Source: Hysterium pulicare CBS 123377
Lineage: Eukaryota > Ascomycota > Dothideomycetes > Hysteriales > Hysteriaceae
Assembly (NCBI GenBank): GCA_000467715.1
Contig: AJFK01000227.1
Span: forward strand, 120,183 to 184,182
Length of the DNA: 64,000 nt
Direction of reading: 5' to 3'
Each line of letters begins with the position of its first letter. Position 1 is the stretch's first letter. The notes below the pieces were generated by a model, which worked only from the letters and a program-made list of their open reading frames with translations, was not told the origin of the DNA and did no database searches. Position numbers and translations under genes: made by a program. Shown here piece by piece: positions 28,655 through 55,045 of the stretch.

Positions 28655-28800
28655 TATTTTACCTTGCCCCAGCGATTGTCCCCCCATCCACAAATCCGTT
28701 TCACACTCTCTAGAAGGCTACGAGCCTTCACGCACCGTACACTCATCAGGCCCTATTGCAGGTGTCCTGCGTCAGATTTTCTCTCTTGTCTTTTAACAGA
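28655..28800 (+). promoter_or_regulatory. shared 5' leader, copy A (helicase gene)
   Basis: The 24-base core is at 28747-28770: CAGGCCCTATT then GCAGG-TGT-CCTGC, followed by GTCAGATTTT and a CTCTCTTGTC stretch. It lies 113 bases before ATG 28860. The block upstream (CCCCAGCGATTGTCC, CTCTCTAGAAGGCTACGA) aligns with the upstream part of copies B, C and E. Confidence 0.8.
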
Positions 28801-28859
28801 ACTCACCTAGCTCCCGAGTCTGTTTTTTTTTGGTGTTTTTTGATGGAGTTTTTGTGAGG

Positions 28860-31800
28860 ATGCCGCCGAAGAAGCCTGCCGAGAGATGGCGGAGGTGGAC
28901 GACCGATGTTATATACGGTAGAGAGCCTGAGACACCATCAGGGCTAAGATCCTCCCCTCTCCCGTCCCCTCCGAGCAACCTCCCTCCGCGACCGCCACAG
29001 GGTGTGCCTTCTGTTCTGCCCTCAAAACCGCCGACTGGTCTGCCTGCCAAACCTCCAGCCAGTCGCCCTTCTGGTCTCCCTGCAAAACCTGCCCCAAAAC
29101 CTTCGGCAGCTCTCCCTCAAAAACCGCCACCAAAGTCCTCTCTTCCGGCAAGGCCGTCACAACCTTCGCCACAACTTCTCTCCACACCGGCAAGACCACA
29201 AGTTGAGTCTGCGCCAAAGCCATCTCCTCGTCCGCTTGCTGCTGCCACTGTGCCGAAAGCTGCTGCGTCGAGCCCGTCCAAACCTCCTGCGCCCGTGTCT
29301 CCTCCACGGCGTTCTCCTCCAAGCTCTCCTCCTCCAAGCTCTCCCCCTCCACGACCCTCCCAACGCTTCGTGCCGTCCGTCGGCCAAGCTCTCGCGTCGT
29401 CCGTTAATACCGGCGCTCCTCTCATTGCTCCTTGGAATGCGGTCGCCAATCAACGGCGATTTCTGACCTCGGAGGTTCCAGCCGGACCCTCGCGAACGTT
29501 CCCAGCCATAGTCAATTTCAATGGTGAAACGTTCGGTACGCTTGATAACAACACCAACCTCAAAGTCTGGTGTGAGTTGAGTGCTACAGCCCCAACGTTT
29601 GAACTCCGCGTTGGAACACCCTCTTCAAATGGATGGAAGTCGTTCGAAACCCTAGAATGGCACCCCGACACGCTCTCAAGCAACTTCCGTGTCGACATCC
29701 TCAACATCACTGATAGGTCTGAGTTGGCTAGAGATCTCAACAGTCTGGTCAGCTCTGTAAGTAATGCCGAGGTCCGTAACCGTCAGCCGTGGTATGGTCA
29801 TATCCACGTTGAATTGGACGAGACCGGACATGTTCAAGAGCCTGCGCACTGGATCGACACGCAGCTCAAATATGACGCTCCAACCTCCTCCTCCTCGTCA
29901 TCGTCCTCCTTAACCCCGCCTCCTCAACCTCCGATTCCCGAGATTCCCGCGCCAAGAGCAAAGGAGACGATCGCTTCGCTGAAAAAAGCGATGAAATTCG
30001 ATCTCTGGGTATCGCTGCACTCCAATGATGGTAGGAGTCTGGCAGATTTCAAAGAATTCGCCATTATCATCAACAAGGTCCGCCGGCTTTCTCGTAATGG
30101 TCATCCTACGAATGCATGGTGGCTCACTCGCAATCCCGCCTTTGGCCAGCACCATGGTCAGAACAAGACAGACTTTGGTGCGCTCATTGAAGACTACCAT
30201 GCGTGGCCGGTCCATCAACCATGGCTGCGACAGCAAGACACGTACTCGTCCATCTGGAACGAGGACGCACCGAAAGCTCGTCTTGCTGGCCCCGACGCGT
30301 ATCAACAAACATTCGTGACTGGCGTTTTGGGTGAACTGCAGGAGTCTGCGAATGTAATGGGCAAGCAGTATGACGAAGGAACGCGCTATAAAGCCAAATT
30401 CGTCAAAGGCAAAAGACAATGGCTGATCAAAGTGAGGCTCGGCAATGACACGGCTTCGCATGGTGGCCAGCAAGTCGTCCCCGCTCCCGGGTCAATCATC
30501 GATATCAGCATCCGTCGTTCCGGGTATCCTATCCGCGGCAAGTGTGACTGGACCGGCGCCGTGTCAGATGTGACTGAACGCGGCTATGACTTCATGATGG
30601 TTGCCGGCATTCCCAAGGACCTCAAGGGTGTAGGCATCGATATTGACAACGATCTTCCCATCGTCATGCGAGTGAACCCGAGGGATAAGCAGTCGGAGCG
30701 AATGTGCACTGCAGTCTTGACAGCCTGCACTCAATCACGCTCGTATAGAAAGCCGCAGCCTGATCGATATGGTCGTATCCCATGGGACAACAGCAACATT
30801 GTCTCTGGTAAACTCGTCGAAGAAGATTCTCCCGACTGGCTTCGGAATTGGATGGACAAGCATGACGATGACAAGGACTCTGCACAATATCAATCAACCT
30901 TGCATGAAGTCCTCAATACGCTTCCCGAGTCTCTCAACGACGAGCAACGGTATGCGTATAATCTAGCAATCCGAGGGTGCCGTTCTGCCCTCCTCAGCAT
31001 CCAAGGATTCCCCGGTACTGGCAAATCTTTCACGCTTGCGAGAATCATCATCGCTCTCGTTCTTCTCGAGCAGAATGTTTTGGTCTCCGCTCAATCCAAC
31101 ACTGGCTGCTGCGAAGTTTTCAAGAAGGCTGTCCGCTACGCCAAGCAGCATCACTGCGAATGGCTCGAGCAAGGTTGGTTCGTTCGGTTGGGCGCTAAGA
31201 CTGTTGAGCAAGAGGTCGCCAGACTCTTCGAGCAAGATGGGTTTGTTCTTGAGATGAGCGAGATCGAGCAAGCTCCTAGGACTAAGATCGACCCGGCCAA
31301 TCTTGAGTATACTGGTACCGCCTTGTCGCAAAAGTGGGCGCGTGAGAACCCGGATGATCCCATCAGCAGAGACTTCTTCACTTATGAGCGCTATCGCAAG
31401 GAGCGCAGAGAAGCAAAAGATCCCTTCCCCGCCGAGCCAATTGGCAACAAGCCCGAGTCGGAAATGCTGACCCTCATGCGATTCCGGGTCTGCGAGAATG
31501 CCAAAGTCATCGCAGCCACTGCATCCGCTGCCGCCGAACTCACCGATGATGCCGACTTCCATGCCACCGTCTTCCTCTTCGACGAAGCATCACAAGCCGT
31601 CGAGCCTGCTATGCTGGTGCCGCTCGTAGACCAAACCGGCGTTAAGCAAGTAATTCTCGGTGGTGACCATAAGCAACTTGGCCCGGTCATCCTCTCCCAA
31701 CGGCAATCCCCTTTTGCCGCTCAACTCGCCGTCTCTCCTCTTGAACGTTTCGCAAAGGCGTTCCCTTACCGTCCTCTGGTCCAGTTGACGAAGAATTATC

Positions 31801-32504
31801 GAGGTCATCCCGAAACAATTTCGATGTCCTCGCACCTTATCTATGGCGACCGAATGAAGCCGGCTCGAACCAATCTTGAGAGCGACTTGACAAGGAACCT
31901 GGACTCTCAACTCCGCAATGGTCTATGCAACAATAGGTTCCGCTCTCCGCAAGGCGATGGCCGAGCATGGTTCGTCGATGTTCCTGGCTACTCGGAAAGG
32001 CAACCCACTGGCAGCTCTTCAATAAACACTGCCGGTATCCGAGCCATTGTCAGCTTGATCAAAGATATGGTTCGGTATGGTGGAGTCCGTGAGGATCAAA
32101 TCGTCGTCATCTCAATGTACTCTTACGACAAGGAGATCCTCCGGGCCATGCTTAAGTCGGAGTCTTTGGGTGGGGTTGAGGTAGCTACTGTGGACTCTTT
32201 CCAGGGCCACGAGCGTGAAGTTGTGTTGGTGCACTGGGTTGCTGCTTTTCAGCAGAAGGATCGTCATAATCCAATTGGTTTTGTTGGGGATGCCAAACGA
32301 CTCAACGTGGCGGTTACGAGGGCCATCGATTATATGTTCCTCGTTGGCAATCTCTCGCATTGGCGGAATCGTCTGAGGCGTCACACTGATCCGGTTTTGT
32401 TTGATTCGGCTGGGAAGAAACGGTATGATGTGCAGCATCGGGATGAGGCGTTTGCGGGAATGATTGATTGGGTGGTGGAGCACGGTCAAGTGGTTCGTTG
32501 GTAG
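28860..32504 (+). CDS. superfamily 1 (UPF1-like) helicase with proline-rich N-terminus
   Basis: A single frame of 1214 residues from ATG 28860 (the frame is open earlier only from a non-ATG codon). Residues about 30-180 are extremely rich in Pro, Ser and Lys with many KPP and RPS runs, probably disordered. The middle (about 180-640) has no domain I can name. The helicase core is complete: motif I GFPGTGKSFTLARI, motif II FLFDEASQAVEPAML, motif III VILGGDHKQLGPVI, motif IV LTKNYRGHPETIS, motif V VATVDSFQGHEREVVLV and motif VI RLNVAVTRAIDYMFLVG. The DEAS box and order are those of UPF1/SEN1/DNA2-like SF1B enzymes, which move 5' to 3' on RNA or DNA. The gene is intron-free and preceded by leader copy A, which it shares with four unrelated genes in the window. 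Nucleic-acid substrate unknown. Confidence 0.9.
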   Translation: MPPKKPAERWRRWTTDVIYGREPETPSGLRSSPLPSPPSNLPPRPPQGVPSVLPSKPPTGLPAKPPASRPSGLPAKPAPKPSAALPQKPPPKSSLPARPSQPSPQLLSTPARPQVESAPKPSPRPLAAATVPKAAASSPSKPPAPVSPPRRSPPSSPPPSSPPPRPSQRFVPSVGQALASSVNTGAPLIAPWNAVANQRRFLTSEVPAGPSRTFPAIVNFNGETFGTLDNNTNLKVWCELSATAPTFELRVGTPSSNGWKSFETLEWHPDTLSSNFRVDILNITDRSELARDLNSLVSSVSNAEVRNRQPWYGHIHVELDETGHVQEPAHWIDTQLKYDAPTSSSSSSSSLTPPPQPPIPEIPAPRAKETIASLKKAMKFDLWVSLHSNDGRSLADFKEFAIIINKVRRLSRNGHPTNAWWLTRNPAFGQHHGQNKTDFGALIEDYHAWPVHQPWLRQQDTYSSIWNEDAPKARLAGPDAYQQTFVTGVLGELQESANVMGKQYDEGTRYKAKFVKGKRQWLIKVRLGNDTASHGGQQVVPAPGSIIDISIRRSGYPIRGKCDWTGAVSDVTERGYDFMMVAGIPKDLKGVGIDIDNDLPIVMRVNPRDKQSERMCTAVLTACTQSRSYRKPQPDRYGRIPWDNSNIVSGKLVEEDSPDWLRNWMDKHDDDKDSAQYQSTLHEVLNTLPESLNDEQRYAYNLAIRGCRSALLSIQGFPGTGKSFTLARIIIALVLLEQNVLVSAQSNTGCCEVFKKAVRYAKQHHCEWLEQGWFVRLGAKTVEQEVARLFEQDGFVLEMSEIEQAPRTKIDPANLEYTGTALSQKWARENPDDPISRDFFTYERYRKERREAKDPFPAEPIGNKPESEMLTLMRFRVCENAKVIAATASAAAELTDDADFHATVFLFDEASQAVEPAMLVPLVDQTGVKQVILGGDHKQLGPVILSQRQSPFAAQLAVSPLERFAKAFPYRPLVQLTKNYRGHPETISMSSHLIYGDRMKPARTNLESDLTRNLDSQLRNGLCNNRFRSPQGDGRAWFVDVPGYSERQPTGSSSINTAGIRAIVSLIKDMVRYGGVREDQIVVISMYSYDKEILRAMLKSESLGGVEVATVDSFQGHEREVVLVHWVAAFQQKDRHNPIGFVGDAKRLNVAVTRAIDYMFLVGNLSHWRNRLRRHTDPVLFDSAGKKRYDVQHRDEAFAGMIDWVVEHGQVVRW

Positions 32505-35979: not shown

Positions 35980-37177
35980 ATGCACAGCCTTTGAACGATT
36001 GCTAGCGACAAATCTCGAATGGTATAGGAACCAGCAAATGAGGATAGTGAGTGCACCTATCTACACATGGCCGATAATGAAATCCTTCTGCCCCCATATT
36101 CCCGATTTCCGAAACTGTGTGATTGGAGACACGTTCTCACATGGCTGCATGTTCGGTGCGCCTAAAACAGTAGTGAGTGGCATTTCGCAGGCAGTGGAAC
36201 ATTTGGCGAGAAGGAGAATGGCGGATATCCGTGGCCGCTTCTGCATTGTCGATGCCTAGAGATACGCCATGCATACTAACGTTTTCAAGTCGATTATTTC
36301 ATTGGTTTACCAGAGTCGGCGCAGTTGCGAAACTACTTCGCTCTCGTGTTCCGGATTCCTGAGCCACCTTGTCGGGGACAAGGCGTATTTGCATCTCCTA
36401 ACTTGGCCCCACACATCATTTGAGCGAAAGTCAAGCTTCACTCCCCGGTGACTTGTTAAAGAAAGAGCTCTAATATAGACTCTACAGTTACCTTTAGCTT
36501 TTCGCCTTCCCATGGCTAGTTGTGTCTTGTGAGTCTTGGGACCGTGTTCTATCTCAGCCTAGCACAGCCTCACGGATGCGGCGTTCTCAGCCTCGTCTCT
36601 CCAACCAACACCACCAACGTTTTGGGTCCCTTGCTTCAGTCATTTATTATCTCGTTGTTACACAGCCTTCACGCGAGAGGAAGTCTCGATATACTACTAC
36701 ACTCTTTAAACCATTTTTGTGTAGTATGCGCTAGTCTGGTCCGTCGTTACGACCTATCATTCATCGTCGTGTCATCCAATATGCAACATTTCCATCGCAG
36801 CTTTAGTCAACTTCCGACTTGAAATACTTTGTATTTACTTCTTTATTTATCTGGTTTCAAAGTTCGTTTTCAAGGCCTGCTAAAAGCATCGAGTTTCGGT
36901 CCACGATCTCGTTCGTTGCGCCTAGGGGACTACAATAGTGACCCTGTCGGCAAACTTCCTCGGCGACACATTCTACTCTGGGAGTCTATCGAGGTCATCT
37001 TGCGTTATTGGATCAGGATACCATTCGCTCGAAACTGGTCGGTTGTTGCAACTATTGACTATTCTGGATAGGTAAACTGCCAACGATTATTTCCGACGGG
37101 GCTTCTTACTTTAAATAACCAGTGCGAAGTACTACAGGCTATCTCAAGGCTAGCTAAAACGCCGGTAGAATCGAAGA
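35980..37177. other. intergenic, no supported gene
   Basis: Nearly 1.2 kb between two plus-strand genes. Frames of up to 100 codons (36520-36822) are not supported by motifs. It should contain the promoter of the large PARP-domain gene. No leader core of the type found at 28.7 kb is present. Confidence 0.45.
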
Positions 37178-40100
37178 ATGGTTCTATTTGGCAAGAGAAA
37201 GAGTGAAGGATGGCATCACCAAATCGACCTCGCGATTCCGGCAAATGTACGACCAACAAGCCCAAAATTTCCCTATTATGCTTTACGGCTCATCACCGAC
37301 GCATACATTAAGAAGAAGGGGAAAAAGAGCCAACAAGAAATCGAGATCTCTCTTGTGACATTGATTCAGAATCATGAAGCAAGAGACGTAGCGATAGCAG
37401 CATGTTCTCACGCGATGTCCCCGGCTTCCCTGCGGGCCTTGTTGAACGTAGAACTCAATGTCGCCCCCGTCACATACTTCGGCATAACCTCCTATCTTGA
37501 ATCCCTTGTGGCGGCAAACTACAGCAATCCGAAAGCTATCAGCGACCTCGAGGCTCGATGGGCGCGAGGGCTAATCCCGTATGCAACTCCAGGCACAGGT
37601 GCTGCGGGAAGATACCTCGAAGGGGTTTGTGAATTACTGAAGGGTGGAACCGTTTCAAGCTTGAACAGCCTTCCCGACTTTGCTGTGCTTACGCGGAAAG
37701 CGTTTGGAGATTTCGCATCTCACCTGGATGGGCTTAAGCTCAAAAGCCAATGGGTGGCAGCTCATTCATCCGTTGCATGGCTTTCGAAACTTTTGCAACA
37801 GCCGTCCTCGCATGTTGGACTCAGACCAGAGCAACTCCTCGACAGCCAGTTCCCGAATTGGAGGATATGGGCAGCGTGGCAACCCAACTTAAACCGCCTA
37901 CGTCTCCTCGAAGGCCTCGATAGTAACCGTCGTGCCGTGCTACCCGATCTGCTTGCGTTGGATGGACCAGACTTCCTCGCTGGAAACTATACTACTTTGA
38001 AGGATGGACTACTGGCAAAATACAAAGACACGTCACCGTCAATCAAGTTTCGGACTCTAAAAGTTGAGATTAAGTCAAGCACTACTGCCGAGCTCAAAGG
38101 CATGCTAGATCGACTATTAGCAGTGCTTGAAATAGTAAGCCAAAGGAGCAACGACGCCATGGCACTGTTCGCCCATCTATGCATTGGCCACATCGTCACC
38201 CAAGAAGCTTTACAGGTTCTTGTTGGCGTCTGCCAAATTCCGGAAAACCCACAACGTCCGATCAGTGGAGCCGTTCTGCATGTATACTCGTTTCGAAAAT
38301 CTTTGACCATCCAAGATGCAGCTGCGCTATCCGCTCTGTTACCAGCCCTCGAGGATAGTCGAGGTGAGCTTCTCCGAGGCGTTTTGACTCCCTATCTCAT
38401 AGAGGGAATCCACGTCTGCGTTCAGCAGATGCAGGATGCTTTCCAAGCACAGATAACGGCCGGCGGATCGTGGGGCAAGATGGCAAAAGAATTGCATGCA
38501 TTTGGCCAGACTCTAATTGGCGCCACTTGCTTTCATACTTTTCTCGAACCTCCGCTACGCTCTCTACTCGATCTCTGGCCGAGTTCAGGCATCCTTAAAC
38601 AAGTCATTGGTATATACACGGAAGCAAGATTCTCATTACCGGATACTACATCTAACTTCTTGGCGAATGCACTCGAATCTTATTGTATGGATGGACTCGT
38701 TAGGCGCGGAATGATCGAGATTCCCGAAAGAAGTGTAGTTGATGCTATTCTACATCTTTGGGAGGAGACTGCCAACCAAGACCGTCGTGCCCTAGCGTTG
38801 CGTGTCGCAAACAGCTCTGGAATGTCGACCGATCTTCGTTGTCGATCCTTGGCCCAACTTACACAGCTGCCCGATGATTTTGTCCAGAACTTCCGAGGCC
38901 TTCTAGACAACTACAACAATGAAGGAGAAATGTCTTGTATACGAATGACAGAACTCCTCGCAAAAGGAGACCCTGATACTATGGATTGTTGGAGAGGCCT
39001 TTTCTTTCGCATGCTAGAGCAACTGAATGATACCCTGCTTGACTACTCATTGGTTCACCTAAACCCCGAAGAATGGCTTCAATGGCTCTCCAACCTCGGG
39101 TCTATATTCGACGATCTCATATTCCCGACGCCAATATCTTCGCTAGCAGTCCTTCAACCAGGACTTCATCTATGGGGCCAGCAAGCCTCCGAATATCTGC
39201 CAACCATCACACGCTTAGAGGCTGCTTTAGGTGCTAATTCTCCCGCATTGCATTGTCTCTTAAGAGGCGGCGACGGACTATGGGTGGAATGTCTCGTTCG
39301 CATTTTGAACCTCCTCACCGAGAACCAGGATCAACCCTATGAGGATTTAATGCAGACAGTAACAGGCTTGATGTCTCGTGATGGAAGCGATGCTGCGGAG
39401 ACTTCAGGTTGCCTGGCATTACTCAACTCTGCCTCTACAGAAGGTGGCGAGGCTTGCCGCCGGATCTTGGAATCATATAGAATGGACCCGGCGGTAGTGG
39501 TCGAAGTTAATGTCGCTGGCTGGTTAAACGATCCCCAGGTAGCTGAACATGATAAGCTGGCAATACAAGCATTGGCGGTAGTGCTGGGACTCGAGATAGA
39601 TGGTGGTGGGGTTTCGAACGCAAAAATACGAGCAGCAGCGGATTACCTCGAAAAGCAAGCTAACATGATACTGGAAGAGGCTCGGCAACTGGAGGGTCTT
39701 CAGAAGGCACTGAAGGCGAAGGACCCGTCCGGTACGGCAGCATTGTTGGCTTCGCTGGGGATCGCGGACACTACACCACTTGAGGAAGAACTCGAAGTAC
39801 TACCAGCGGATTTGCTTAACTCTATCGAGAAATACGGTAACCAGGAGGTAGAAATCACCTTTCCGTTGACCCATCTCACCGATTTGCAAAAGGCAGCTTT
39901 GGGTGCCGGGGCTGCTCAAAGCATGCTCATACGTATAGCAATCGACTTCACTGGCGACATCATGGTCGGATTTTGTGTTCATCTCGACAACGAGCCTGAC
40001 CGGGAGGATATAATGGACCACAACCATTGGGCTGTATACGATGGCTCAGATGAACCGGAGAGATCTCACTGCCGAGGAAGGAGCAGCCTGATCACATGGC

Positions 40101-41104
40101 AGATGTCGCGTTCCTTACACCGTCATCTGAAGAAGGGTTATGTCTCGCTTGCCGACATCCATCAATTCATCGCGGAACGTATCAGCGATATGGCGCATTG
40201 TTGCCTTGTGTGCGGTAGCCACCACAACGCTAGACAAACACAGCTGAGACGTCCAATCCCATGTCAAGCAGTGGCATGTAGCAGGATGTGGAATCGTGTG
40301 TCTGTCGATGTTCGCTTCACTGAAATCCGTTCCGATCCTACAGCGGTCGATCTGCTCCTCACAGGCGTCTATGCCGCCGCTATGAGCGGTCGCACGGATC
40401 TTTTGCCAGGCTGTCCCGTCAAGACCACAGCGAACGTAATCGCGATATTGAACACGCTTCCTTCCATGTCCCTTCTCCAGACCGCCCTCGACCTCTCCGA
40501 CGAGCTTAAATCATGCCACAAATCCGCGATCGAACTTCTATCCTGGGCCTTCACCTGCTACCGCGGCTTCTTGGCTTCTTGTTCAGGCATCTTACGCATC
40601 CCAGGCTTGCCTCAAGGAACCCAACAATTCATGCTGGCAAACGCAAGCCCGGAACTCGAATCCGCATTTGCGAAGCAAGTCACTCGCTTCAACCCACGCA
40701 GCACCCCAACACGAGTTCTTTTCCACGGCACCTCCCTCGACCGCCTCACCTCAATCCTAATGCAAGGCTTGAAGATCTGCTCTGGGACCTCACTCCAACG
40801 AACAGGCGCCGCTCACGGCAATGGCATCTACATGGCCGAAGAGCCCGCCACCTCCATCAGCTATTCCCCGTCGTCCGTGTCTTGGAGAGGCAGCGCGTTT
40901 CAACATATGAGGGTGTTGCTGGGATGCGAGCTTGCGGGGAACGGAAATAGTGTTTCGCCGGGTATACATGTTATCAAGGACCCGAATACAGTTATGGTGC
41001 GGTATGTGTTTTTATTTACGGCTGCTGCGGTTGTGCCTATTGCGACGCATGTTACGCCGGCAATGGTGAGTGCGTTTTCGGCGTTGAGGAGTGGAGCTGT
41101 TTAG
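37178..41104 (+). CDS. large protein with C-terminal PARP (ADP-ribosyltransferase) domain
   Basis: One uninterrupted frame of 1308 residues. The first ~950 residues are helical and leucine-rich, without a domain I can name. Around residues 1008-1032 a Cys cluster (CCLVCGSHHNAR, then PIPCQAVACSRMW) resembles the zinc-like segment that precedes the catalytic domain in PARP6/8-type proteins. The catalytic part (about 1175-1300) has the donor-site histidine in TRVLFHGTSLDRLTSILMQG and the tyrosine in AAHGNGIYMAEEPATSISYS. The third position of the H-Y-E triad falls in NTVMVRYVFLF, where no glutamate is evident. In PARP families lack of this Glu goes with mono-ADP-ribosylation or inactivity. It differs from fungal PARP1 homologues, which carry BRCT and WGR modules. 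Target and role unknown. Confidence 0.82.
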   Translation: MVLFGKRKSEGWHHQIDLAIPANVRPTSPKFPYYALRLITDAYIKKKGKKSQQEIEISLVTLIQNHEARDVAIAACSHAMSPASLRALLNVELNVAPVTYFGITSYLESLVAANYSNPKAISDLEARWARGLIPYATPGTGAAGRYLEGVCELLKGGTVSSLNSLPDFAVLTRKAFGDFASHLDGLKLKSQWVAAHSSVAWLSKLLQQPSSHVGLRPEQLLDSQFPNWRIWAAWQPNLNRLRLLEGLDSNRRAVLPDLLALDGPDFLAGNYTTLKDGLLAKYKDTSPSIKFRTLKVEIKSSTTAELKGMLDRLLAVLEIVSQRSNDAMALFAHLCIGHIVTQEALQVLVGVCQIPENPQRPISGAVLHVYSFRKSLTIQDAAALSALLPALEDSRGELLRGVLTPYLIEGIHVCVQQMQDAFQAQITAGGSWGKMAKELHAFGQTLIGATCFHTFLEPPLRSLLDLWPSSGILKQVIGIYTEARFSLPDTTSNFLANALESYCMDGLVRRGMIEIPERSVVDAILHLWEETANQDRRALALRVANSSGMSTDLRCRSLAQLTQLPDDFVQNFRGLLDNYNNEGEMSCIRMTELLAKGDPDTMDCWRGLFFRMLEQLNDTLLDYSLVHLNPEEWLQWLSNLGSIFDDLIFPTPISSLAVLQPGLHLWGQQASEYLPTITRLEAALGANSPALHCLLRGGDGLWVECLVRILNLLTENQDQPYEDLMQTVTGLMSRDGSDAAETSGCLALLNSASTEGGEACRRILESYRMDPAVVVEVNVAGWLNDPQVAEHDKLAIQALAVVLGLEIDGGGVSNAKIRAAADYLEKQANMILEEARQLEGLQKALKAKDPSGTAALLASLGIADTTPLEEELEVLPADLLNSIEKYGNQEVEITFPLTHLTDLQKAALGAGAAQSMLIRIAIDFTGDIMVGFCVHLDNEPDREDIMDHNHWAVYDGSDEPERSHCRGRSSLITWQMSRSLHRHLKKGYVSLADIHQFIAERISDMAHCCLVCGSHHNARQTQLRRPIPCQAVACSRMWNRVSVDVRFTEIRSDPTAVDLLLTGVYAAAMSGRTDLLPGCPVKTTANVIAILNTLPSMSLLQTALDLSDELKSCHKSAIELLSWAFTCYRGFLASCSGILRIPGLPQGTQQFMLANASPELESAFAKQVTRFNPRSTPTRVLFHGTSLDRLTSILMQGLKICSGTSLQRTGAAHGNGIYMAEEPATSISYSPSSVSWRGSAFQHMRVLLGCELAGNGNSVSPGIHVIKDPNTVMVRYVFLFTAAAVVPIATHVTPAMVSAFSALRSGAV

Positions 41105-42687: not shown

Positions 42688-43463
42688 GCGGGGAGTTGTT
42701 GTGGTTGTGGGAGAGGTAATCAACGCAGTTGAGCTCCGTTTCAGAAGGATAGGAGAAGCCCTACAGAGCTGGCCTAATTCCTCTGTGTAGAGAAAAGAGA
42801 AGGTTGTTCTCTATTCTGTCTTAGTAGAGTAGAATGTAAGATTATGAAGTTAAGCTTGATTCTCTCACAATCTTTTCCTACTGTATCCTGAGCACGTTTG
42901 GGCTGTAGGAAAGTGGCTAATGGGATTTCTTCTCTGTGCGGGCCTCCTCGATATATAATCTATCTACTATTCTAGATTATTGTTTTAAAGAATAATAAAA
43001 GCTGAATTGTGTAAGTTACATAGTAGTGACTTACTACGCGTCCATGAACGACCGAGCACGCCAACCGATCACACAACTCCGCAATTACCACCAAAACCAC
43101 GAACCCTCGACCTCCCTCTGCAGTTCAGAGTCGGCAGGTGGCCTGGATTGCTTTTGTAGATAAGCCTTCGATGGTCATACACACTTGAAGCTCAGACTGA
43201 CATGAACTGCCAGACTCATTCACTTATTCATTGACCGCTTTCGCGCGTCTCCCAGTCAACACACTGCAGTTAAAAGTGCATTTCCCCCTATCATCACCGA
43301 TATCTCCATGGCTACTTCTGTTTATGTTCTTATGCTCATATGCTCATTTCCATCACTAACATGCCGGATCGCGAAACGTATTCTTAACAACCATATATTA
43401 GCGTCGTAAGTCGACATACCACACGGGAAGAAATAACACTAACAAAGAAACCGTAGGGTCACA
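42688..43463. other. intergenic, no supported gene
   Basis: AT-richer DNA (TATATAATCTATCTAC near 42950) between two BTB-like genes. I see no coding signal or repeat. Confidence 0.45.
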
Positions 43464-44363
43464 ATGTCTCCACCGCCGTTCATACACGCAAGTGGACCTC
43501 CCTTCCTCATTCGAATCGGACACTATGAAGAAACCCTCGTTCTCGAAGAAGAGGACGAGCCCGAGAGCGAATTCATACCGGTTCAAGAATTCGTCCTCAC
43601 CCGCCTAGAGGTTCAACAGCATTCTACATACTTCGCTCATATAATGCAAGACCCCGACGTTACCGAGAACGGCCTAGACATGGATAACGAGGACGATCTA
43701 AAGCCCTTCAACTTGTGGTACTCCTTCGTCAAGAATCACCGCCTACGAGATAACATCGGACGAAAAATTGGTTTCCATACAATCGAAGACCTCATCGAAG
43801 GGTACATCCTGGGAAGCCAGCTGGGCGCCATCTACTTCATGGACGCCGTCATGGACGAGATCCTCCGGAAATTCAAGTACGAGCCTCACAAAGCATACAT
43901 AAACGCGGTTTGGCAGTGCACCGAGCGCGGTTCGCTTCTAAGGCGCATGTTTGTCGAGCTGTGTGCAGGTGGGCCGGCAACCTGTTTGCGACTGGAGAAT
44001 GCGGACGAATTTCCGAACGATTACATCAAGAGGGTATCGAAGCTCTACTGGCTCGTAAGGGACAATGACGAAGAGAAGCGAATTGTTTTGCCGGATTTTC
44101 GAGACTTGCCGACGAGATCTTTTGGGTTGGGTGGTTGCCGGTATCATGAGCATAGGCGGCAGGGTACATGGTGCTATCGTGATATCTTCTCAACTACTGG
44201 GGTACGTGAGAATCCGATTACGAGGGGGGTGTCTCTTCGAGGGTATGTTTTACAGGGCAGAGGTTCCAATGAGCATAGGAAGAAACGAAAAGCTGCGGAG
44301 AAAAAGAATGAGGGTGAGGAAGTGGAGAGTCAGTCGACAGAATCAATGAAAGGGAGCCATTGA
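43464..44363 (+). CDS. BTB-like protein 2
   Basis: A single frame of 299 residues. The N-terminal strand-helix portion (PFLIRIGHYEETLVLEEEDE, EFVLTRLEVQQHSTYFAHIM) fits a fungal BTB-like fold in which the second segment is the helix that packs on the sheet. DDLKPFNLWYSFVKNHRLRD corresponds to the dimer-face segment. The tail IEDLIEGYILGSQLGAIYFM, AVMDEILRKF and CTERGSLLRRMFVELCAGG is typical of the helical extension in these proteins (the S-x-L-R-x-x-F-V-x-x-C signature). The C-terminus is basic (RKKRKAAEKK), a possible nuclear signal. It is a likely distant paralogue of the gene at 41754. Confidence 0.72.
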   Translation: MSPPPFIHASGPPFLIRIGHYEETLVLEEEDEPESEFIPVQEFVLTRLEVQQHSTYFAHIMQDPDVTENGLDMDNEDDLKPFNLWYSFVKNHRLRDNIGRKIGFHTIEDLIEGYILGSQLGAIYFMDAVMDEILRKFKYEPHKAYINAVWQCTERGSLLRRMFVELCAGGPATCLRLENADEFPNDYIKRVSKLYWLVRDNDEEKRIVLPDFRDLPTRSFGLGGCRYHEHRRQGTWCYRDIFSTTGVRENPITRGVSLRGYVLQGRGSNEHRKKRKAAEKKNEGEEVESQSTESMKGSH

Positions 44364-44734
44364 TGAGGGGAGGCGTGCTGGGAAGCGGATCCACGGGAGA
44401 GCTTCGCCTCACCCAATGGCTGTTTATCGAATGGCAACTATCATTCCTATCATTCCTGTACAACTCCTACACATTCCAGATACTTAGAAGTATCAACAGA
44501 AGAACATTTACCTTGACACAATCAGCTATTGGAGGCACAGTGGTGTCGCTGAATGCCAAGGCCATACTGTAGGCATGTCGATGCAATGAGCGACGCTAAC
44601 CAACCCTCTTTGGGTTGGTGGACCAAAGATTGAGTCTGGCGCAGCGTTGAAAAGGGCGCCATCGCCCACATTTCTCCAACCTCACGTCCAAAATTCCTCG
44701 CGTTGTTGTTCCCTTGGCCTACAAAGGCTCAGTC
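44364..44734. other. intergenic, no supported gene
   Basis: Contains the 3' region of the BTB-like gene and the distal promoter of the coiled-coil gene. No gene supported. Confidence 0.4.
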
Positions 44735-44895
44735 TCTACTTCTCGGATTTATCCACCCAGCGCATTGTTCCGTTCCCCCATTCTCAACCTTTTGAACTCT
44801 TCAGGAGATTACGAATCTTCAAACAAACTCACCCGTCTCCAGGCCCTATTGCAGGTGCCCTGCATCAGATCTTTATTTTTCTTGTCTTTTGAACT
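44735..44895 (+). promoter_or_regulatory. shared 5' leader, copy B (coiled-coil gene 45016)
   Basis: The 24-base core is at 44840-44863 with GCAGG-TGC-CCTGC, followed by ATCAGATCTTT and TTTCTTGTCTTT. It lies 176 bases before ATG 45016. The upstream part (CCACCCAGCGCATTGTTCC, CCATTCTCAACCTTTTGAA, GATTACGAATCTTCAA) aligns with copies A, C and E. Confidence 0.82.
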
Positions 44896-45015
44896 TGTTC
44901 TCGAGGTGACAGTTCGCTTTCTAGTGCTATTTGACCGCTCTTCCCTGACCTCTCGACCTCTCTCTCAAGCTCTCTCTTTTGCTCTTTCTCTTGACCTCTC
45001 TCAGCAATCTCCTCC

Positions 45016-46689
45016 ATGCCTCCTCGCAAGAAACCGTCAGCCAGGCCCGCCCAAGCTCGCAATGAGAGCACTCTGCATTACCACTATGGAAATTACGGTG
45101 AAGTAGACGTCCTGCTCTTTGACCATGCCGAAGCAAGGGGACGATGGAAGCAGCGGTTGGAGACTGCTCAGGAGAATATGCGGCGTCAGCTTGAAGGAGG
45201 AAATGTCGCCGCTGCTGAAGACGTTTACGACGAGAATGCGGAAGCTCTCGAACGTGATAGGGAAGAGTTGCTCGAGAGAAAAAAGTTTGGCGAGGCTCGT
45301 GTAAAGGCGGTGGCGGAGCTCCTCCGACATCCTCACAATGCTGCTACTCGCAATCTAGAGTTCAAAGCAGAATGGCATTCTCTGACGACTAAGCTCGTCA
45401 AAAACGTCCAACTATCAGGTGCCGGCCGAGACCCCCTGGAAAAGACGACGCTTGAGAACCTCGCGGCGGATTATGAGCGTCTGGTCACCGATCATCGCTC
45501 TTTGCAGAGCCAACAGAGGAACCAGGCCGAAAGCCACCGCAAAGAGTATACTAAAATGGCGGTAGAGCTGGATACTGCGAAAAAGCATCTTAGGCAGGCA
45601 ATACGTGATCATGAGCAGCGTGAAAAGGGACTCCAAAGCTCTGTCATGGCCAAGGATCAAGTCATCCGAGACCTGCAATCGCAGCTACGGCAGCTCCGAC
45701 AGAACCCAAGCCCCGCCACTCATCTTGAAAGCCTTAGTCGCAAAGATGAAGAACGCGAGGAGTTGAGGAGATCGTTGGTGAAGGATGCGAAGCAATGGGA
45801 GAGCAAATTTAACCTCAGTGAGGAGAATTTGGAGCAGGAGCAGCGCAGAGTAAAGCAGTTGCGTGAGCAAGCGTCCTCCCTTGAAGCCAAAATCAGGGAT
45901 CTGGAGGGTAGATTGGAGTTTGCCGAGCAGGTCAAGGGTTCTGCCGACCAAGCAATCAAGATGGCGTGGGAACACTTCGGAACGAAATCCGCAGAGCATT
46001 TGGCCGCCGTCGCCCGCGAGAGTCAGCTCAAGGGCAAACTGGAGACATGTGAAACTCAACTTCAGGGTGCAGTCAAGGAAGCGACGGACCTGCGCAAGGC
46101 CAACAAGTCCCTTCAAGCCATTTCTCGCCGCCGTCTCTTCCAAAAAGCTGGACTGGTTTGTCGGGTTCAAAGTCTGGAGTCACGTTGTCAGCGTCTGCAC
46201 AACATGTATGTTCAACAGGTCTGTGGCCATATGAGGACTGGCAACACTCTTCAATCAATGCGTGGCTCAAAGTCTAGGTACTGCCTGAAAATGGCTGCCT
46301 ACAAAGCTATGCATGTTAATGTCAAGCGAAGAGAGCTGCAAATGTTGGGCATGGTGATGAGGAAGGGCATCAATACTCTCAGGGACGAACGGATTAACTT
46401 TGCGGCTACCTTGAACTTGAAAGACGGTCAGCTAGCGCACCTTGATGAGGAAAAGCAGGGCTTGAGTGAGGGTTTGAGGAAGGCGAAGGAGGAATTGGAG
46501 GTGGTTCGAGGGGAGGTGGAGGTGGCTGAGGGTCGGAAACGGCAGTTGGAGATTGAGGTTGAGAAGGGAGGAGAGAAAGCGGCGGAGGATGCAGAGCTTC
46601 AAAGACTACTTTTTATGGCGAGTATGAACCTTACTGAGGAGGATGTTGAGAGGGCACAATGGGAGTTGCAGCGACCTAGATTGGAGTGA
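45016..46689 (+). CDS. coiled-coil protein 1, family with relics at 60.9 and 61.2 kb
   Basis: An intron-free frame of 557 residues beginning MPPRKKPSARPAQ. Residues about 40-100 and 155-350 are strongly heptad-rich (Glu, Gln, Arg, Leu), so a long coiled coil is expected; a second one spans about 460-530. Between them is a basic, Cys-containing segment (RRRLFQKAGLVCRVQSLESR and YCLKMAAYKAMHVNVKRREL). The segment LLRHPHNAATRNLEFKAEWH is repeated in a relic at 61.2 kb (LIRNPPNAAAHNLEFEAEWH), showing that the gene belongs to a small family. No enzymatic motif is seen. The gene carries leader copy B. Function unknown; a scaffold or structural role is only suggested by the coiled coil. Confidence 0.78.
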   Translation: MPPRKKPSARPAQARNESTLHYHYGNYGEVDVLLFDHAEARGRWKQRLETAQENMRRQLEGGNVAAAEDVYDENAEALERDREELLERKKFGEARVKAVAELLRHPHNAATRNLEFKAEWHSLTTKLVKNVQLSGAGRDPLEKTTLENLAADYERLVTDHRSLQSQQRNQAESHRKEYTKMAVELDTAKKHLRQAIRDHEQREKGLQSSVMAKDQVIRDLQSQLRQLRQNPSPATHLESLSRKDEEREELRRSLVKDAKQWESKFNLSEENLEQEQRRVKQLREQASSLEAKIRDLEGRLEFAEQVKGSADQAIKMAWEHFGTKSAEHLAAVARESQLKGKLETCETQLQGAVKEATDLRKANKSLQAISRRRLFQKAGLVCRVQSLESRCQRLHNMYVQQVCGHMRTGNTLQSMRGSKSRYCLKMAAYKAMHVNVKRRELQMLGMVMRKGINTLRDERINFAATLNLKDGQLAHLDEEKQGLSEGLRKAKEELEVVRGEVEVAEGRKRQLEIEVEKGGEKAAEDAELQRLLFMASMNLTEEDVERAQWELQRPRLE

Positions 46690-47343: not shown

Positions 47344-48963
47344 TCAACCCGTTGCTTCTAATTTTGCCAGGAATCCGTGCAAATCCCTCAACAACCGTTT
47401 CCACTCTTCCCCTCCCTCAATCAAGTCAAGCTGGTCCGAGCATTCACACATGAAACTAGCACCTTCCATCAAATCACGGATTCCCTGGTTAACCTGCTCC
47501 CCTCTCCTTCGTTCGAGTTGGAGCACTCTAGCTTCCACCTTCTCCACCTCAGCCTTCAACTCCGCCTTCTCTTTCAGGTAGTTTTTCATTTTTGAAGGAG
47601 CTTCTCCAGTCGATGCGCCTGCAGATGTTGCCGCATTCATTGATGCTGCTTTCTCGGTAGCAATACTGAGCACCTCAAGTGTTTTACACTCATACGCGAG
47701 GTTGGCCTTCAACGGTGAATGTTGAAGGGCATACGCTTGAGCAATTTGCCATACATCGTCATGCGCACTCCTGGCCGAGTCGTTGCTCCTTCCAGCTGGA
47801 TAGTGACTGAATCCTCCGCCCCTTTCGGTATATCCCTCACCAAGTCGGGTCCAGAGGATTTCGGAAATTTCGGCCTGTTGCTTCTGCCAAATGAGGTATA
47901 TTACGTACTGTTGAATCTTGTACGTCTTTTTGAAATGCTTATTCCTGGTGAAGACTGTGCAGACAGCATCAAACATTCCCATGATATAGTTAGAGGACTG
48001 ATGCTTGGCGTGCTGCTTAAGACGGCTAATAGAGTCTATTGCATAACCAATCTCGACCAATGGATGTTTCAGGGGCATATCGGGAAGCTTTTCGGGGTAT
48101 GTAAGTCGTCTACGAAGAGCATCGCAGAATTTCTTGGTCTCCGTTACTCGTCCCTCTGATAGTGCATCATAAGGTTCGGCATTCTTCGGCGCTCTCCGAG
48201 TCCACAGATACTTGCGATAATCATTCTTACTCTGCTCCTTGGTCACTGCCGGTTTCGTGACATTGTCGATTAGGTAGGCCATTTCAGGATCAGAATTGTT
48301 CATGTATTTCTCAATCTCCTGAATGACATCCAGCAACTCGTTTGGAGTAGGCGATAAGCCTTCATCGTCGGTAAGAAGCTGCATGTAGATGGAGGGCTGA
48401 TGCGGCGCTTGCTTTTTGAGATTGTCCAAAGCCACCTTGGTTGCTACATCATTTCTTGCCTGCCACGCCAGATTGCCGCTGATAACTCCTCGAAGTATGC
48501 GTCGATCTGTAGAAGCTAGAATCAGATTGGCATAGTATACGATCCAGTCCTTATCGCTCCCTTTCATTGTCTTGCCGGTGGCGTAGCGAGCAAAGATCTC
48601 CTCTTTCATCAACTCCCTAGCTAGTACCTCGGTTCCCGAACGCAGAAGCCTCATCCATTGCTTCTTGTGGGCTGGAAGAGACGTAGGGATTTCATCTGTG
48701 TCTAGCTCCAGGCCTCCATCCCTAAGTTCAACGAACTCAATGTTGTCGAGCTCGTCATCGTCAATTTCCATCTTGTCGTCTTCCTCGTCATAGTCTTCCT
48801 CGTCATCTTCCCCACGCCTGAATCGCTCGTACCTGGCTGCCAAGGACTCTACCGATGTGTTTTCCAGCCTTGCCGCGATCCGGAGAAACTCGATCTTGTG
48901 CGTGCCAAGCTCAAAATTGAATGTGGAGGCGGAGGACGAGGGGGCGTTGGCCGAAGAGGACAT
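47344..48963 (-). CDS. hypothetical protein with acidic tract and C-terminal coiled coil
   Basis: An intron-free frame of 539 residues starting MSSSANAPSSSAST. An acidic stretch lies near residues 50-80 (EDDEEDYDEEDDKMEIDDDE). The middle part (WMRLLRSGTEVLARELMKEE, YRKYLWTRRAPKNAEPYDAL, YVIYLIWQKQQAEISEILWT) looks globular and helical, with no family I recognise. Residues about 455-500 form a short coiled coil (LKEKAELKAEVEKVEARVLQ). The gene carries leader copy C and stands head to head with the small gene at 49742, which carries copy D. Function unknown. Confidence 0.75.
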   Translation of the reverse strand: MSSSANAPSSSASTFNFELGTHKIEFLRIAARLENTSVESLAARYERFRRGEDDEEDYDEEDDKMEIDDDELDNIEFVELRDGGLELDTDEIPTSLPAHKKQWMRLLRSGTEVLARELMKEEIFARYATGKTMKGSDKDWIVYYANLILASTDRRILRGVISGNLAWQARNDVATKVALDNLKKQAPHQPSIYMQLLTDDEGLSPTPNELLDVIQEIEKYMNNSDPEMAYLIDNVTKPAVTKEQSKNDYRKYLWTRRAPKNAEPYDALSEGRVTETKKFCDALRRRLTYPEKLPDMPLKHPLVEIGYAIDSISRLKQHAKHQSSNYIMGMFDAVCTVFTRNKHFKKTYKIQQYVIYLIWQKQQAEISEILWTRLGEGYTERGGGFSHYPAGRSNDSARSAHDDVWQIAQAYALQHSPLKANLAYECKTLEVLSIATEKAASMNAATSAGASTGEAPSKMKNYLKEKAELKAEVEKVEARVLQLERRRGEQVNQGIRDLMEGASFMCECSDQLDLIEGGEEWKRLLRDLHGFLAKLEATG

Positions 48964-49059
48964 TTTGAGGCGAGAGGTAGAGGAGGAGTCGGGAGGTTTA
49001 GAAAGGCTCAGGGGGTCCCAAAGAAGAAAATAGTAAAGTAAACTCGGTAGCTAATCGAG

Positions 49060-49205
49060 AGTACAAAGACAAGAAGATAGATCTGAGGCAGGTCACCTGC
49101 AATAGGGCCTGGAGAGGGTCAAAGGGCTTGAAGATTCGTAAACTTCTAGAGAGATTGGAAGGGTGAGAATAGGAGAACTGTACTACGCAGGGGGAAAGGT
49201 ATAAT
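49060..49205 (-). promoter_or_regulatory. shared 5' leader, copy C (gene 48963, minus strand)
   Basis: On the minus strand the 24-base core runs from 49111 to 49088 with GCAGG-TGA-CCTGC, then CTCAGATCTAT and TTCTTGTCTTTG. It lies 148 bases before the ATG at 48963. The upstream part (GCGTAGTACAGTTCTCC, ATTCTCACCCTTCCAATC, TCTAGAAGTTTACGA) is the best match to copy E, and similarity continues after the core into GTACTCTCGATTAGC and CGAGTTTACTT. Confidence 0.85.
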
Positions 49206-49399
49206 ATAGAGCAAAGCCACAGAAGGCAAAGAATTAGAAGATAGCTGGTGTTGGGTTGTTGTTTGAGAAGACGCGAAGTGAAATCAGATAGAAAACGCGC
49301 GTGGACGCCAAGACTCGCATTCACATGCGGATCAGGTGAAGAGATCCACTACCCTCTTTCAGGTATTCTTCCTCTTCCTCTTCAGTCAGCCCACTTTGA

Positions 49400-49570
49400 T
49401 CGCACTTCTTCTATTGACTACATAGTCTACACTCTCCTGAACCTAACGGTGACCTATTCAAACACATTACATAACTCTGATCAAGCTCAGCTTGTATATA
49501 CCCGGAACTACCTTTGCTTTCAGGCCCTATTGCAGGTGTCCTGCTCCGAACCTCATTCTCTCTTGTCCTC
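49400..49570 (+). promoter_or_regulatory. shared 5' leader, copy D (gene 49742)
   Basis: The 24-base core is at 49519-49542 with GCAGG-TGT-CCTGC, followed by a more diverged tail (TCCGAACCTCATTC) and then TCTCTTGTCC. It lies 223 bases before ATG 49742. The flank upstream is the most diverged of the five copies, which makes the perfect core stand out. Confidence 0.78.
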
Positions 49571-49741: not shown

Positions 49742-50302
49742 ATGCCTCCAAAGATCGCTCCACCAGCAATGCAACCGTACGTAGCACCAACCTGGCACCT
49801 GATGTCATTACTATACTAATTCGAACTGTATAGGACTACCTGGATTGAAGCATACGCCGGGATTAAGAAAGCCGGCTATCCCTCAGAGCTTCCCATTACA
49901 ACTTTCATGTGGCACTGCGCGATCATTCACGTCGAAATTTGGATCGGCAACCCGATCGCAGACGAAGTCATTGGCAATCATATCGTCCAGCGCGGGAAAT
50001 GGCAGCATGGAGGGCGCAGAGGAGAGCTAATCATCAATCTTGCCGAGCAGTACGATGGCCCCGCCTTCACCTATCCGCTCCTCCGACACTTAATCAACGC
50101 CTCTCCGGCTGGATCACCGCCGTATCTCATTGCACAAGCCCTTGATGCTGCTCTTCAAGCACAAGAGGATTTCGAAGCCAAGAGGGTTCATGGCAAGGCG
50201 TACGTCGAGGACTATTACGAGTTGAAGAGAGTTTCGAAGATCTGGCAGCAGCCGCCTGAATTTGATATGCTGTCGACGAGAATGTTTAGTCTGAAACTTT
50301 GA
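49742..50302 (+). CDS. small protein resembling BTB-like C-terminal regions (2 exons)
   Basis: Exon 1 is only 35 bases (49742-49776, MPPKIAPPAMQ). A 57-bp intron with GTACGT and a CTAAT branch follows, and exon 2 is 49834-50302; together 167 residues. The second exon (FMWHCAIIHVEIWIGNPIAD, FTYPLLRHLINASPAGSPPY) has the helical pattern of the tail that follows the BTB fold in fungal BTB-like proteins, including the S/A-G-S-P segment. The BTB sheet itself is missing, so this may be a partial copy placed behind a leader. The start codon context and the MPPK opening match two other leader genes. The BTB relationship is a weak inference. Confidence 0.65.
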
Positions 50303-52595: not shown

Positions 52596-54849
52596 TATCT
52601 GAGGTCACTTGGTTGCCGGCACTCTTGAAGACACGCATGCGAGGTAGGAATCAACTCACCAATCGCCAACCTAAGATGGAGGATCGTACCCAGAGCCCAG
52701 TCACTGGCTACCAGGTTAACCAAGACATCACATCCTCCGTCTGTCAGTTCAACAATTGCCACTCGCCCCTGGATCTATATGGTCCGCTCCACCTGTCAGT
52801 TTACTGAACATCAATCCGCCGTCTAGTTCACAGATCACCACTCCTACCAAGGTCATCGTACTCAAAGTCTGATGGCTCAACGTATGGAGGAGGTCATCCT
52901 ACGAGGGCCGTACGGAGGCCTTACACCAACCTGTGAACAATACGATCCCACCAAAGGGCAAGATCGTAGTTGGCTACCAGATGTCTATGACGATACAGTT
53001 GCCAAGTACTATTCCTGTATCTTTTTCCTCTTTGTTGTCAAACTTATGGACTCTTCCATGACCCTTCATCAGCTCCATCTGTTTGCAGAATACTCACCAA
53101 CAATCTCAACCTACCGCATGGAAGGAGCTCTTCGGCACTATCCGGCACACTGATTCACTACAAGGCGAAGTTTAGTAGATAATTCTGTTCAAGCAGCTCC
53201 TGTGCTCACAGGGGTTCCCCTTCGAGAGCAGTAGCGCCGCGGACGTAGGCTACTACTCGACCCCAGCGCGATGCGGCGGTTCAGGGTCCATGGCTTTGCT
53301 ACAAGCTCCCCGTTTTCGAAGTATAACAGTTCTTTTCCTGCGAGTATGGCCTCATCGCCTTGGACTTCGTCACTCTCTGTTGCCTGGACCTCGTCGACGC
53401 TGGATGATGGGTCATCGGAGCTGATACTGAGGACCATGTCTGGAAGATCTCCAGATGAGATCTTCTGCCTGTGTCGTCCTCGACCGCATCGTCTTTACTT
53501 CATTCTTTTCATCCACAATAGTGCTCTCCCCCAACTGCATAAGATCGTCCTTGCCATCTGAGGGTCGGGCCTCTTGCGCCTAGCCTTCAGAGCCTGGAAA
53601 TGCTTGTCATCTGTCGTCCACCTGTCGTCGTATTCGACATTCGCTCCGTCGAGTGGCGCGGTCTTGTTGTTTTCGTAGACAAAGACTTCAAAGGTGTTGA
53701 CCAGTCGGTGGCAGTATACCTTCATCGTCATTGACATTGCCGTGGATGACCTCATCGTCGACCGGAAAGACACCTTCGCACATCCCACTCGCACTGCACC
53801 ACTAAACTATAATGGTCGCTATCGGGTCCATCAGTTACGAACTTCTTCGCTTAACTACAGTGGATTGTTCACTGGAGCTCCTCAGACCACCGCACTTTAG
53901 CTTATTTGAGAGATCGCATGGTGTTACAGTTGTTCCGCAGGACCTTAGCGTCCATCTGGACTACAGAGATCAGGCTTTCAACAACCAGAGTCGCGCGTCC
54001 CTCATCATCAAGGAAAAGCATAGCTGCAGTACCGTTCTAGGTAATATTGGAAGGGCAATTTCCTCCCGTCTTTCATATTTCATAGTTTCAATCTATCCCT
54101 CTCAAGATTCACTGTTGAAACTACGCTTTTGAAACCTTGGGATGGTAGACTATGGAATGAAAACTTCGATCGGAGACGGTGATAGCATGCATGATGACGT
54201 TCATACAGCAATCAAGGGATGGGCTTCGGTGGTGTGAGTCAATATTTGATGGCGATTCAGCGACGTCCTTCAAGCGTACGATGATTGAGGTCGATCGGAC
54301 ATTGGCAAGTCTTGACGATGGATGAGATGAACATCTCTTCTTCACAACTTGGCGTATGGCAGATTGCACAATGTGATGACATCAACTCCTTTGATACATC
54401 TCTGTAATCCCTAGCCACTTAGCCATTTATCCATCGATCTATCCTCTTCCAAAACCAGTTGATTGTCAACATGATTGGTCAGATGAGGGCGATCTGCCAC
54501 TGGTCGTTGGTTCGAATATACTATGCCTCACCACTCACCCTTGCCGGCACCACTTTTCATATACATAAAGATGTAGAAGCATCCCTCAGCACCCATGAGG
54601 GATTCTATCAGCACCTATCTTGCTCAGTGTTGCATTCATTTCGGTTTTCCTGCCCACTACCAGTGTTCAAGAGATTGACCGATGCCTCACGTCACCGTCT
54701 GGCGTGACTTCCACGAAAGGGAGTCACCCCTAGACGAATGCCAAGACCCACAAATCTCGTATATCTCCTGCAAAATACTCATCTTTCTCCTTTTTCTCAC
54801 CATCAGCCTAAGTTATCATCAGTCTTTTGCCTCTCAAGGTCTTGTCGCT
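52596..54849. other. intergenic with possible decayed minus-strand coding fragments
   Basis: No intact gene. On the minus strand, 53189-53437 (VDEVQATESDEVQGDEAILA) and 53495-53794 (CHRLVNTFEVFVYENNKTAP) look protein-like and lie in different frames in the same order, so they may be remains of one gene. Other frames are short and featureless. Confidence 0.35.
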
Positions 54850-55045
54850 ACTTCACGGATATATCCACCCAGCGTAGTACAATTCTCCCATTCTCACCCT
54901 TTCAATCCAATCTCTTTAGAAGTCTACGAGACTCTCATACCTGGTCGCCCCTCATCAGGCCCTATTGCAGGTGTCCTGCTTCAGATTTTTTTTCTTGTTT
55001 CTTGTACTCTCGACTGGCACTCGAGTTTACTTCACTCTTCTTAAC
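54850..55045 (+). promoter_or_regulatory. shared 5' leader, copy E (gene 55253)
   Basis: The 24-base core is at 54956-54979 with GCAGG-TGT-CCTGC, then TTCAGATTTTTTTTC and TTGTTTCTTG. It lies 297 bases before ATG 55253. Upstream CCACCCAGCGTAGTACAA, TCTCCCATTCTCACCC and TTTAGAAGTCTACGA match copy C closely, and downstream GTACTCTCGACTGGC and CGAGTTTACTTCAC continue the match. Confidence 0.85.

What the first reader, a model, noticed from the sequence alone, without database searches (positions are those of the whole stretch)
28747..54979. One invariant 24-base palindromic core upstream of five unrelated genes
Seen directly: the sequence CAGGCCCTATT followed by GCAGG-TGN-CCTGC occurs at 28747-28770, 44840-44863, 49088-49111 (minus), 49519-49542 and 54956-54979. 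Each copy points towards, and lies 113-297 bases before, the ATG of a gene: SF1 helicase, coiled-coil protein, acidic unknown, small BTB-tail-like protein, and coiled-coil/Cys-rich protein. All 23 fixed positions are identical; only the loop base N varies (T, C, A, T, T). I found no copy without a gene. An inverted repeat kept with a changing spacer base suggests a dimeric protein site or an RNA hairpin, hence a coordinately controlled gene set. I know of no described fungal element like it.
Basis: partly seen in the sequence, partly recalled or inferred. Interest (0 to 1): 0.93.

Follow-up and report, generated by a model that had tools for sequence, protein, structure and literature searches.

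The report
Shared leader element before fungal genes
Five different genes in a stretch of fungal DNA carry the same 24-base sequence just before their start, unchanged while the DNA around it has drifted, which suggests a shared control signal for a set of mostly unknown genes.

Summary
The 24-mer CAGGCCCTATTGCAGGTGNCCTGC occurs exactly five times in the window, with no further match at up to 3 mismatches and none in 100 shuffles; each copy lies 113-297 bases before an ATG and points at it.

Copies 1, 2, 3 and 5 sit in one homologous leader of about 200 bp, with a TATA-like stretch at -92 to -97; their coding sequences show no significant similarity. Copy 4 shares almost only the core. Within the four-copy leader, 23 of 24 core columns are invariant against 55 of 167 ungapped flank columns. 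So the core is under strong constraint or was very recently homogenised.

Most likely it is a cis-regulatory element of a duplicated promoter/5' leader, marking a co-regulated gene set. Its place downstream of the TATA-like stretch and the scarcity of ATGs upstream hint that it is transcribed. DNA site and RNA site cannot be separated: no covariation, no unusual fold stability.

The parts
28747..28770 (+). core copy 1 (N=T), 113 bases before the ATG of the SF1 helicase gene
44840..44863 (+). core copy 2 (N=C), 176 bases before the ATG of a coiled-coil protein gene
49088..49111 (-). core copy 3 (N=A), 148 bases before the ATG of an orphan gene with an acidic stretch
49521..49544 (+). core copy 4 (N=T), 221 bases before the ATG of a small orphan gene; divergent to copy 3; shares almost only the core
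54956..54979 (+). core copy 5 (N=T), 297 bases before the ATG of a coiled-coil/Cys-containing gene
28632..28841 (+). homologous leader of copy 1 (about -115 to +95)
44725..44934 (+). homologous leader of copy 2
49017..49226 (-). homologous leader of copy 3
54841..55050 (+). homologous leader of copy 5
28655..28662 (+). TATA-like stretch at -92 of copy 1
   Evidence: patterns chosen after seeing the sequences
44748..44755 (+). TATA-like stretch (TTTATC) at -92 of copy 2
   Evidence: same caveat
49201..49208 (-). TATA-like stretch at -97 of copy 3 (a second at -92)
   Evidence: same caveat
49495..49502 (+). TATATA at -26 of copy 4
   Evidence: same caveat
54860..54867 (+). TATAT stretch at -96 of copy 5 (another at -196)
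   Evidence: same caveat
49307..49319 (+). GCCAAGACNCNCA, -214 of copy 4 (the same site lies inverted at about -195 of copy 3); one of only 2 sites in the window
   Evidence: noticed after the fact
54740..54752 (+). GCCAAGACNCNCA, -216 of copy 5
   Evidence: noticed after the fact
28860..32504 (+). gene 1: UPF1/SMUBP-2-like SF1 helicase with Pro-rich N-terminus
45016..46689 (+). gene 2: coiled-coil protein, no family above cut-off
47344..48963 (-). gene 3: orphan, no family above cut-off
49742..50302 (+). gene 4: small orphan; intron 49777-49833 is my reading of the sequence, untested
55253..57016 (+). gene 5: coiled-coil protein with Cys-containing C-terminus, no family above cut-off

Best explanation
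The 24-mer is the functional core of a cis-regulatory promoter/5' leader shared by a set of fast-evolving genes. A leader of about 200 bp was duplicated or captured in front of at least four genes; its flanks drifted to about 69-76% identity while a trans-acting factor that reads the whole 24-mer kept the core unchanged. I think recognition as DNA near the start of transcription is somewhat more likely than recognition as RNA. Shown: identity, position, direction, flank divergence. Inferred: selection rather than homogenisation, co-regulation, the factor, and the level at which it acts.
For: Five exact copies, none in 100 shuffles. 5 of 5 point at an ATG 113-297 bases away; the first ATG after the core opens the modelled gene in 4 of 5 (copy 1 has a 4-codon ORF first; gene 4 depends on my intron model). 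Four-way alignment: 23 of 24 core columns invariant against 55 of 167 ungapped flank columns, P about 1e-9 to 1e-10 if columns are independent; longest invariant run outside the core is 6. Upstream similarity among copies 1, 2, 3, 5 is z 4.8-19.0 (6 pairs), with copy 4 z -0.8 to -0.1 (4 pairs), so in copy 4 the core outlives its surroundings; coding starts give z -0.8 to 2.7 (10 pairs), and the five proteins have no blastp match to each other better than E 0.13. All bases bar one are fixed, not only those that could pair. TATA-like stretch upstream in 5 of 5.
Against: No expression data, no genome-wide count, no relative from another species. Short-tract gene conversion could also keep the core identical. 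A fragment related to gene 2 at 61103-61771 has no core or leader before it, though it looks decayed. Core-bearing genes are not clearly more orphan than others: 4 of 5 against 10 of 17 other stretches scanned without a Pfam match above cut-off. TATA-like patterns were picked after viewing the sequences. 5 of 5 direction alone is weak.
Confidence: 0.5

Rival explanations
1. The core acts as RNA in the 5' untranslated leader: the 24-mer folds into a bulged 8-bp hairpin (CAGG-C-CCU / AGG-U-G-N-CCUG, loop AUUGC) or a 5-bp triloop hairpin, and is bound by an RNA-binding protein or small RNA to set translation or stability.
For: The core lies downstream of a TATA-like stretch in 5 of 5; ATG is scarce in the 200 bases upstream (1 seen, 5.9 expected; 7 of 1000 shuffles as low), as if these bases were transcribed; direction is fixed 5 of 5. 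In the bulged fold the one variable base is a bulge and the pairs reach from base 1 to base 23. RNAalifold gives that fold as the consensus of the five. One of the two hairpins is in the best 114-nt fold of 4 of 5 copies. Only 2.1% of 9140 window 24-mers fold as well.
Against: No pair covaries: 8 of 8 pairs unchanged in 5 of 5. Given its base composition the stability is ordinary: z -0.59 to -0.87, 34-54 of 200 shuffles as stable, 10.4% of 5000 mononucleotide shuffles. The two hairpins exclude each other and context splits 3 palindrome, 1 bulged, 1 neither. No Rfam match. ATG is also low from -400 to -200 (15 against 21.1, 0.039) and not significantly low between core and start (1 against 3.4, 0.115).
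Confidence: 0.27
2. The leaders are remnants of a dispersed repeat or transposable element; the core is an old terminal or binding sequence of it and has no role for the genes.
For: Repeated, dispersed, mostly homologous leaders; a known fungal case, mimp, is a MITE in promoters of effector genes that is not needed for SIX1 or SIX3/SIX5 expression (passages of PMC3599309).
Against: No flanking inverted repeat round copies 1, 2, 3 and 5 (arms of 10 or more); copy 4 has one imperfect 10-base pair 123 bases apart. Edges of similarity differ between pairs. No transposase among 22 protein stretches scanned with Pfam. 5 of 5 copies have the same position class and direction; the core is conserved where the rest is not.
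Confidence: 0.13
3. The identity of the core is due to recent short-tract gene conversion or recent duplication, not to function.
For: Four of five copies lie within 10.1 kb, and copies 3 and 4 are a divergent pair 409 bases apart.
Against: In copy 4 similarity ends within a base or so of the same 24-mer whose columns stand out in the other four; tracts stopping at just these edges would themselves need an explanation.
Confidence: 0.07

Closest known systems
conserved_up sequence of the wtf spore-killer family, Schizosaccharomyces pombe (PMC5478263, passages seen)
   Same: A nearly identical non-coding stretch (288 bp there) upstream of many members of a fast-evolving fungal gene family; removing it affected the protecting activity there.
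   Different: wtf genes are one named family with LTR neighbours; here the coding parts show no significant similarity and the fixed unit is 24 bases. No sequence comparison with wtf was made.
mimp MITEs in effector promoters of Fusarium oxysporum (PMC3599309, passages seen)
   Same: One repeated sequence in the promoters of several different genes.
   Different: mimps are 200-220 bp with about 27-bp terminal inverted repeats; none found here. mimp deletion did not change expression of SIX1 or SIX3/SIX5. Sequences were not compared.
Ordinary fungal transcription-factor sites (recalled, not tested)
   Same: Partly palindromic half sites with a short spacer.
   Different: By recall such sites are shorter and tolerate variation; here 23 of 24 bases are fixed, with an 11-base extension on one side only.

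Membership tests
MITE / transposon-borne repeat | terminal inverted repeats round each copy | tested here: not met
   arms of 10 or more: none flanks copies 1, 2, 3 or 5; copy 4 has one 10-base, 90% pair; when copies 3 and 4 are taken together the pairs shown (5 of 10) lie one arm on each side of the divergent pair
MITE / transposon-borne repeat | target-site duplications at the edges | not tested
   the alignments show no common edges
MITE / transposon-borne repeat | copies away from genes in the genome | not testable with these tools
   no whole genome held; none in the window
shared promoter/leader element of a gene set | fixed direction and position before start codons | tested here: met
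   5 of 5
shared promoter/leader element of a gene set | core more conserved than flanks | tested here: met
   23 of 24 against 55 of 167 columns
shared promoter/leader element of a gene set | co-expression of the genes | not testable with these tools
   no expression data
structured RNA leader | compensatory base changes | tested here: inconclusive
   0 of 8 pairs vary; five near-identical cores give this test no power
structured RNA leader | fold more stable than shuffles | tested here: not met
   z -0.59 to -0.87 for the 24-mer, -1.23 to 0.70 in 114-nt context
known Rfam family | gathering-score match | tested here: not met
   0 matches in the window; 0 up to E 1 in 54700-55260

The most novel reading that the evidence does not exclude
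A 24-base non-coding code word that outlives both the promoter around it and the proteins behind it: a dedicated regulator (protein or small RNA) reads it to control a large, otherwise unconnected set of lineage-specific fungal genes, one of them an UPF1/SMUBP-2-like helicase.
Probability: 0.25. Interest if true: 0.8.

Novelty: new variant of a known kind. Interest (0 to 1): 0.5.

Why it matters
Orphan genes are a large, poorly understood part of fungal genomes, usually grouped by protein similarity, which fails when proteins diverge fast. A leader tag that survives when coding similarity is gone would let one list such a gene set from DNA alone, ask when it is expressed, and find its regulator.

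Tried and rejected
Splice-site reading (core as 3' splice site of a leader intron, because pyrimidines precede CAG|G): no match to GT[AG]NG[TAC] from -250 to the ATG in any of five copies; rejected.

RIP-mutated repeat: over 32 bins of 2 kb TpA/ApT is 0.41-0.85 and (CpA+TpG)/(ApC+GpT) 1.07-1.43. The bin with copy 1 has the highest TpA/ApT (0.85; second index 1.09), yet by thresholds that I recall (above 0.89, below 1.03) no bin is RIP-like.

Relatives elsewhere: pattern scans of viral contigs and genome contigs for the 24-mer, 0 each; protein searches with genes 1 and 3 in viral contigs and gene 5 in genome contigs, none confirmed. Genes 2 and 4 were not searched. Neither collection is meant to hold fungal genomes, so these misses say little.

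Structures of gene 4 (exon 2) and gene 3 folded without an alignment: mean pLDDT 36.8 and 40.4, unusable; no fold search was run. No tRNA by a bacterial-code scan.

Literature: the 16-base left part of the core, 0 papers; four pieces of 13-15 bases, 1 paper, a calmodulin paper seen only in the listing, for the 13-base piece. Topic searches: 15 of 74 listed; 7; 2; 1; 4; none of the listed titles and abstract beginnings describes such an element; from them I opened two papers at passages only (PMC3599309, PMC5478263). sought background on core promoters and was not used. Absence from print is claimed only for these searches of open-licence PMC papers.

Full report
Observation. The pattern CAGGCCCTATTGCAGGTGNCCTGC has exactly five matches in the 64 kb window, none with 1-3 mismatches, and none in 100 shuffles. 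The palindrome GCAGG-N3-CCTGC and the left 11-mer (up to 1 mismatch) occur only at these same five places, so the 24-mer behaves as one unit. Distances to the ATG are 113, 176, 148, 221 and 297 bases for copies 1 to 5, always in the direction of the gene.

What lies round it. Copies 1, 2, 3 and 5 are embedded in a longer homologous leader. The five pairwise local alignments made among them (of six possible) reach from between -122 and -79 to between +71 and +205. Upstream similarity (200 bases) has z 4.8 to 19.0 for the six pairs of these four, the weakest (copies 1 and 5) not exceeding the largest of its 200 shuffles; for the four pairs with copy 4 z is -0.8 to -0.1. The first 300 coding bases give z -0.8 to 2.7 over all ten pairs. 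These were mononucleotide shuffles of pyrimidine-rich DNA, so moderate z values should not be leaned on. As proteins, the five show no match to each other better than E 0.13 (genes 2 and 3, 10 of 16 residues). A profile built from all five leaders finds those five, as it must, and nothing else better than E 2.3.

Core against flank. In a four-way alignment of copies 1, 2, 3 and 5 the core has 23 of 24 invariant columns and the ungapped flank 55 of 167; gapped flank columns were left out of this count. Copy 4 extends the point: its core is identical although its flanks are unrelated, apart from TCTTGT, which starts 14, 17, 14, 17 and 14 bases after the core's last base in copies 1 to 5 (TCTTGTC has 15 sites in the window, so it is not rare), and a GCCAAGACNCNCA match at -214, found also at -216 of copy 5 and nowhere else in the window; the copy-4 site serves, inverted, as upstream sequence of copy 3 too. 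Both were noticed after the fact.

Transcribed or not. A TATA-like stretch lies at -92, -92, -97, -26 and -96 (copies 1 to 5); the patterns were chosen after looking, so this is suggestive only. ATG is scarce in the 200 bases before the core, 1 against 5.9 expected; it is also low from -400 to -200 (15 against 21.1, 0.039) and not significantly low between core and start (1 against 3.4, 0.115). Together this leans towards the core being inside or at the beginning of the transcript, at least in the four homologous leaders; no 5' end has been mapped.

Structure. In 114-nt context the best fold holds the palindrome hairpin in copies 2, 4 and 5, the bulged hairpin in copy 3, and neither in copy 1. 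Stability is ordinary for the composition (z -0.59 to -0.87; 34-54 of 200 shuffles as stable), although only 2.1% of 9140 window 24-mers fold as well. No pair varies. The fixity of loop as well as stem bases fits sequence-specific reading better than structure alone. Five-bp inverted repeats with a 3-base spacer are common (51 in the window), so the palindrome by itself is no evidence of a dimeric site; its conservation is what counts.

The genes. Gene 1 is an SF1 helicase of the UPF1/SMUBP-2 kind (AAA_11, AAA_12 and PIF1 above cut-off; PDB sequence matches to UPF1 at 3e-28; IGHMBP2 family 1.8e-52 but below its cut-off). Genes 2 to 5 match no Pfam family above cut-off; for gene 4 only exon 2 was scanned. 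Of 17 other stretches of the window scanned, several from the same genes, 7 pass a Pfam cut-off, so core-bearing genes lean to orphans, 4 of 5 against 10 of 17, without that being evidence. A fragment related to gene 2 (35-38% identity) at 61103-61771 has no core in front; to my reading it lacks a start and is decayed. Fungal origin is inferred from Zn2Cys6, NACHT/NPHP3_N and DUF7025 matches; the species is unknown.

Reading. The best account is a duplicated or captured promoter/leader whose 24-base core is kept by a trans-acting factor, giving a co-regulated gene set. Conserved non-coding sequence before fast-evolving fungal genes is known in kind (wtf conserved_up in fission yeast, passages of PMC5478263), and repeated promoter sequences that turn out not to matter for expression are known too (mimp, passages of PMC3599309). 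What is unusual here is the sharp edge and length of the invariant unit and its presence in copy 4 without the rest.

Noticed in passing
5302-7953: 883-codon open frame without Pfam match at E<=0.01; weak match to group II intron reverse transcriptase (E 4e-4, below cut-off), no PDB sequence match up to E 0.1. By recall it resembles the single-copy cellular reverse transcriptases (rvt) of fungi.
   Followed up: partly
62394-62591: Three tandem 67-68-bp repeats that to my eye read like decayed C2H2 zinc fingers; Pfam gives only zf-C2H2_4 at E 0.39, below cut-off.
   Followed up: partly
61103-61771: Fragment related to core-bearing gene 2 without core or leader; part of it is repeated at 60877-60999 (44% over 41 residues).
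   Followed up: partly
43135-43145: CAGGTGGCCTG, the inner palindrome alone, 329 bases before the ATG of a BTB-like gene; only 11 of 24 core bases match and other ATGs lie between, so probably chance.
   Followed up: yes
55044-55235: Pyrimidine-rich imperfect 23-bp tandem repeats fill much of the leader of gene 5 between core and ATG.
   Followed up: no
37169-41104: 1311-codon frame with a C-terminal PARP catalytic domain match (E 7e-12) after a long region without a match above cut-off.
   Followed up: no
41980-44363: Two weakly related proteins (blastp E 3e-4), BTB-like by recall, without Pfam match at E<=1 and without the core.
   Followed up: no
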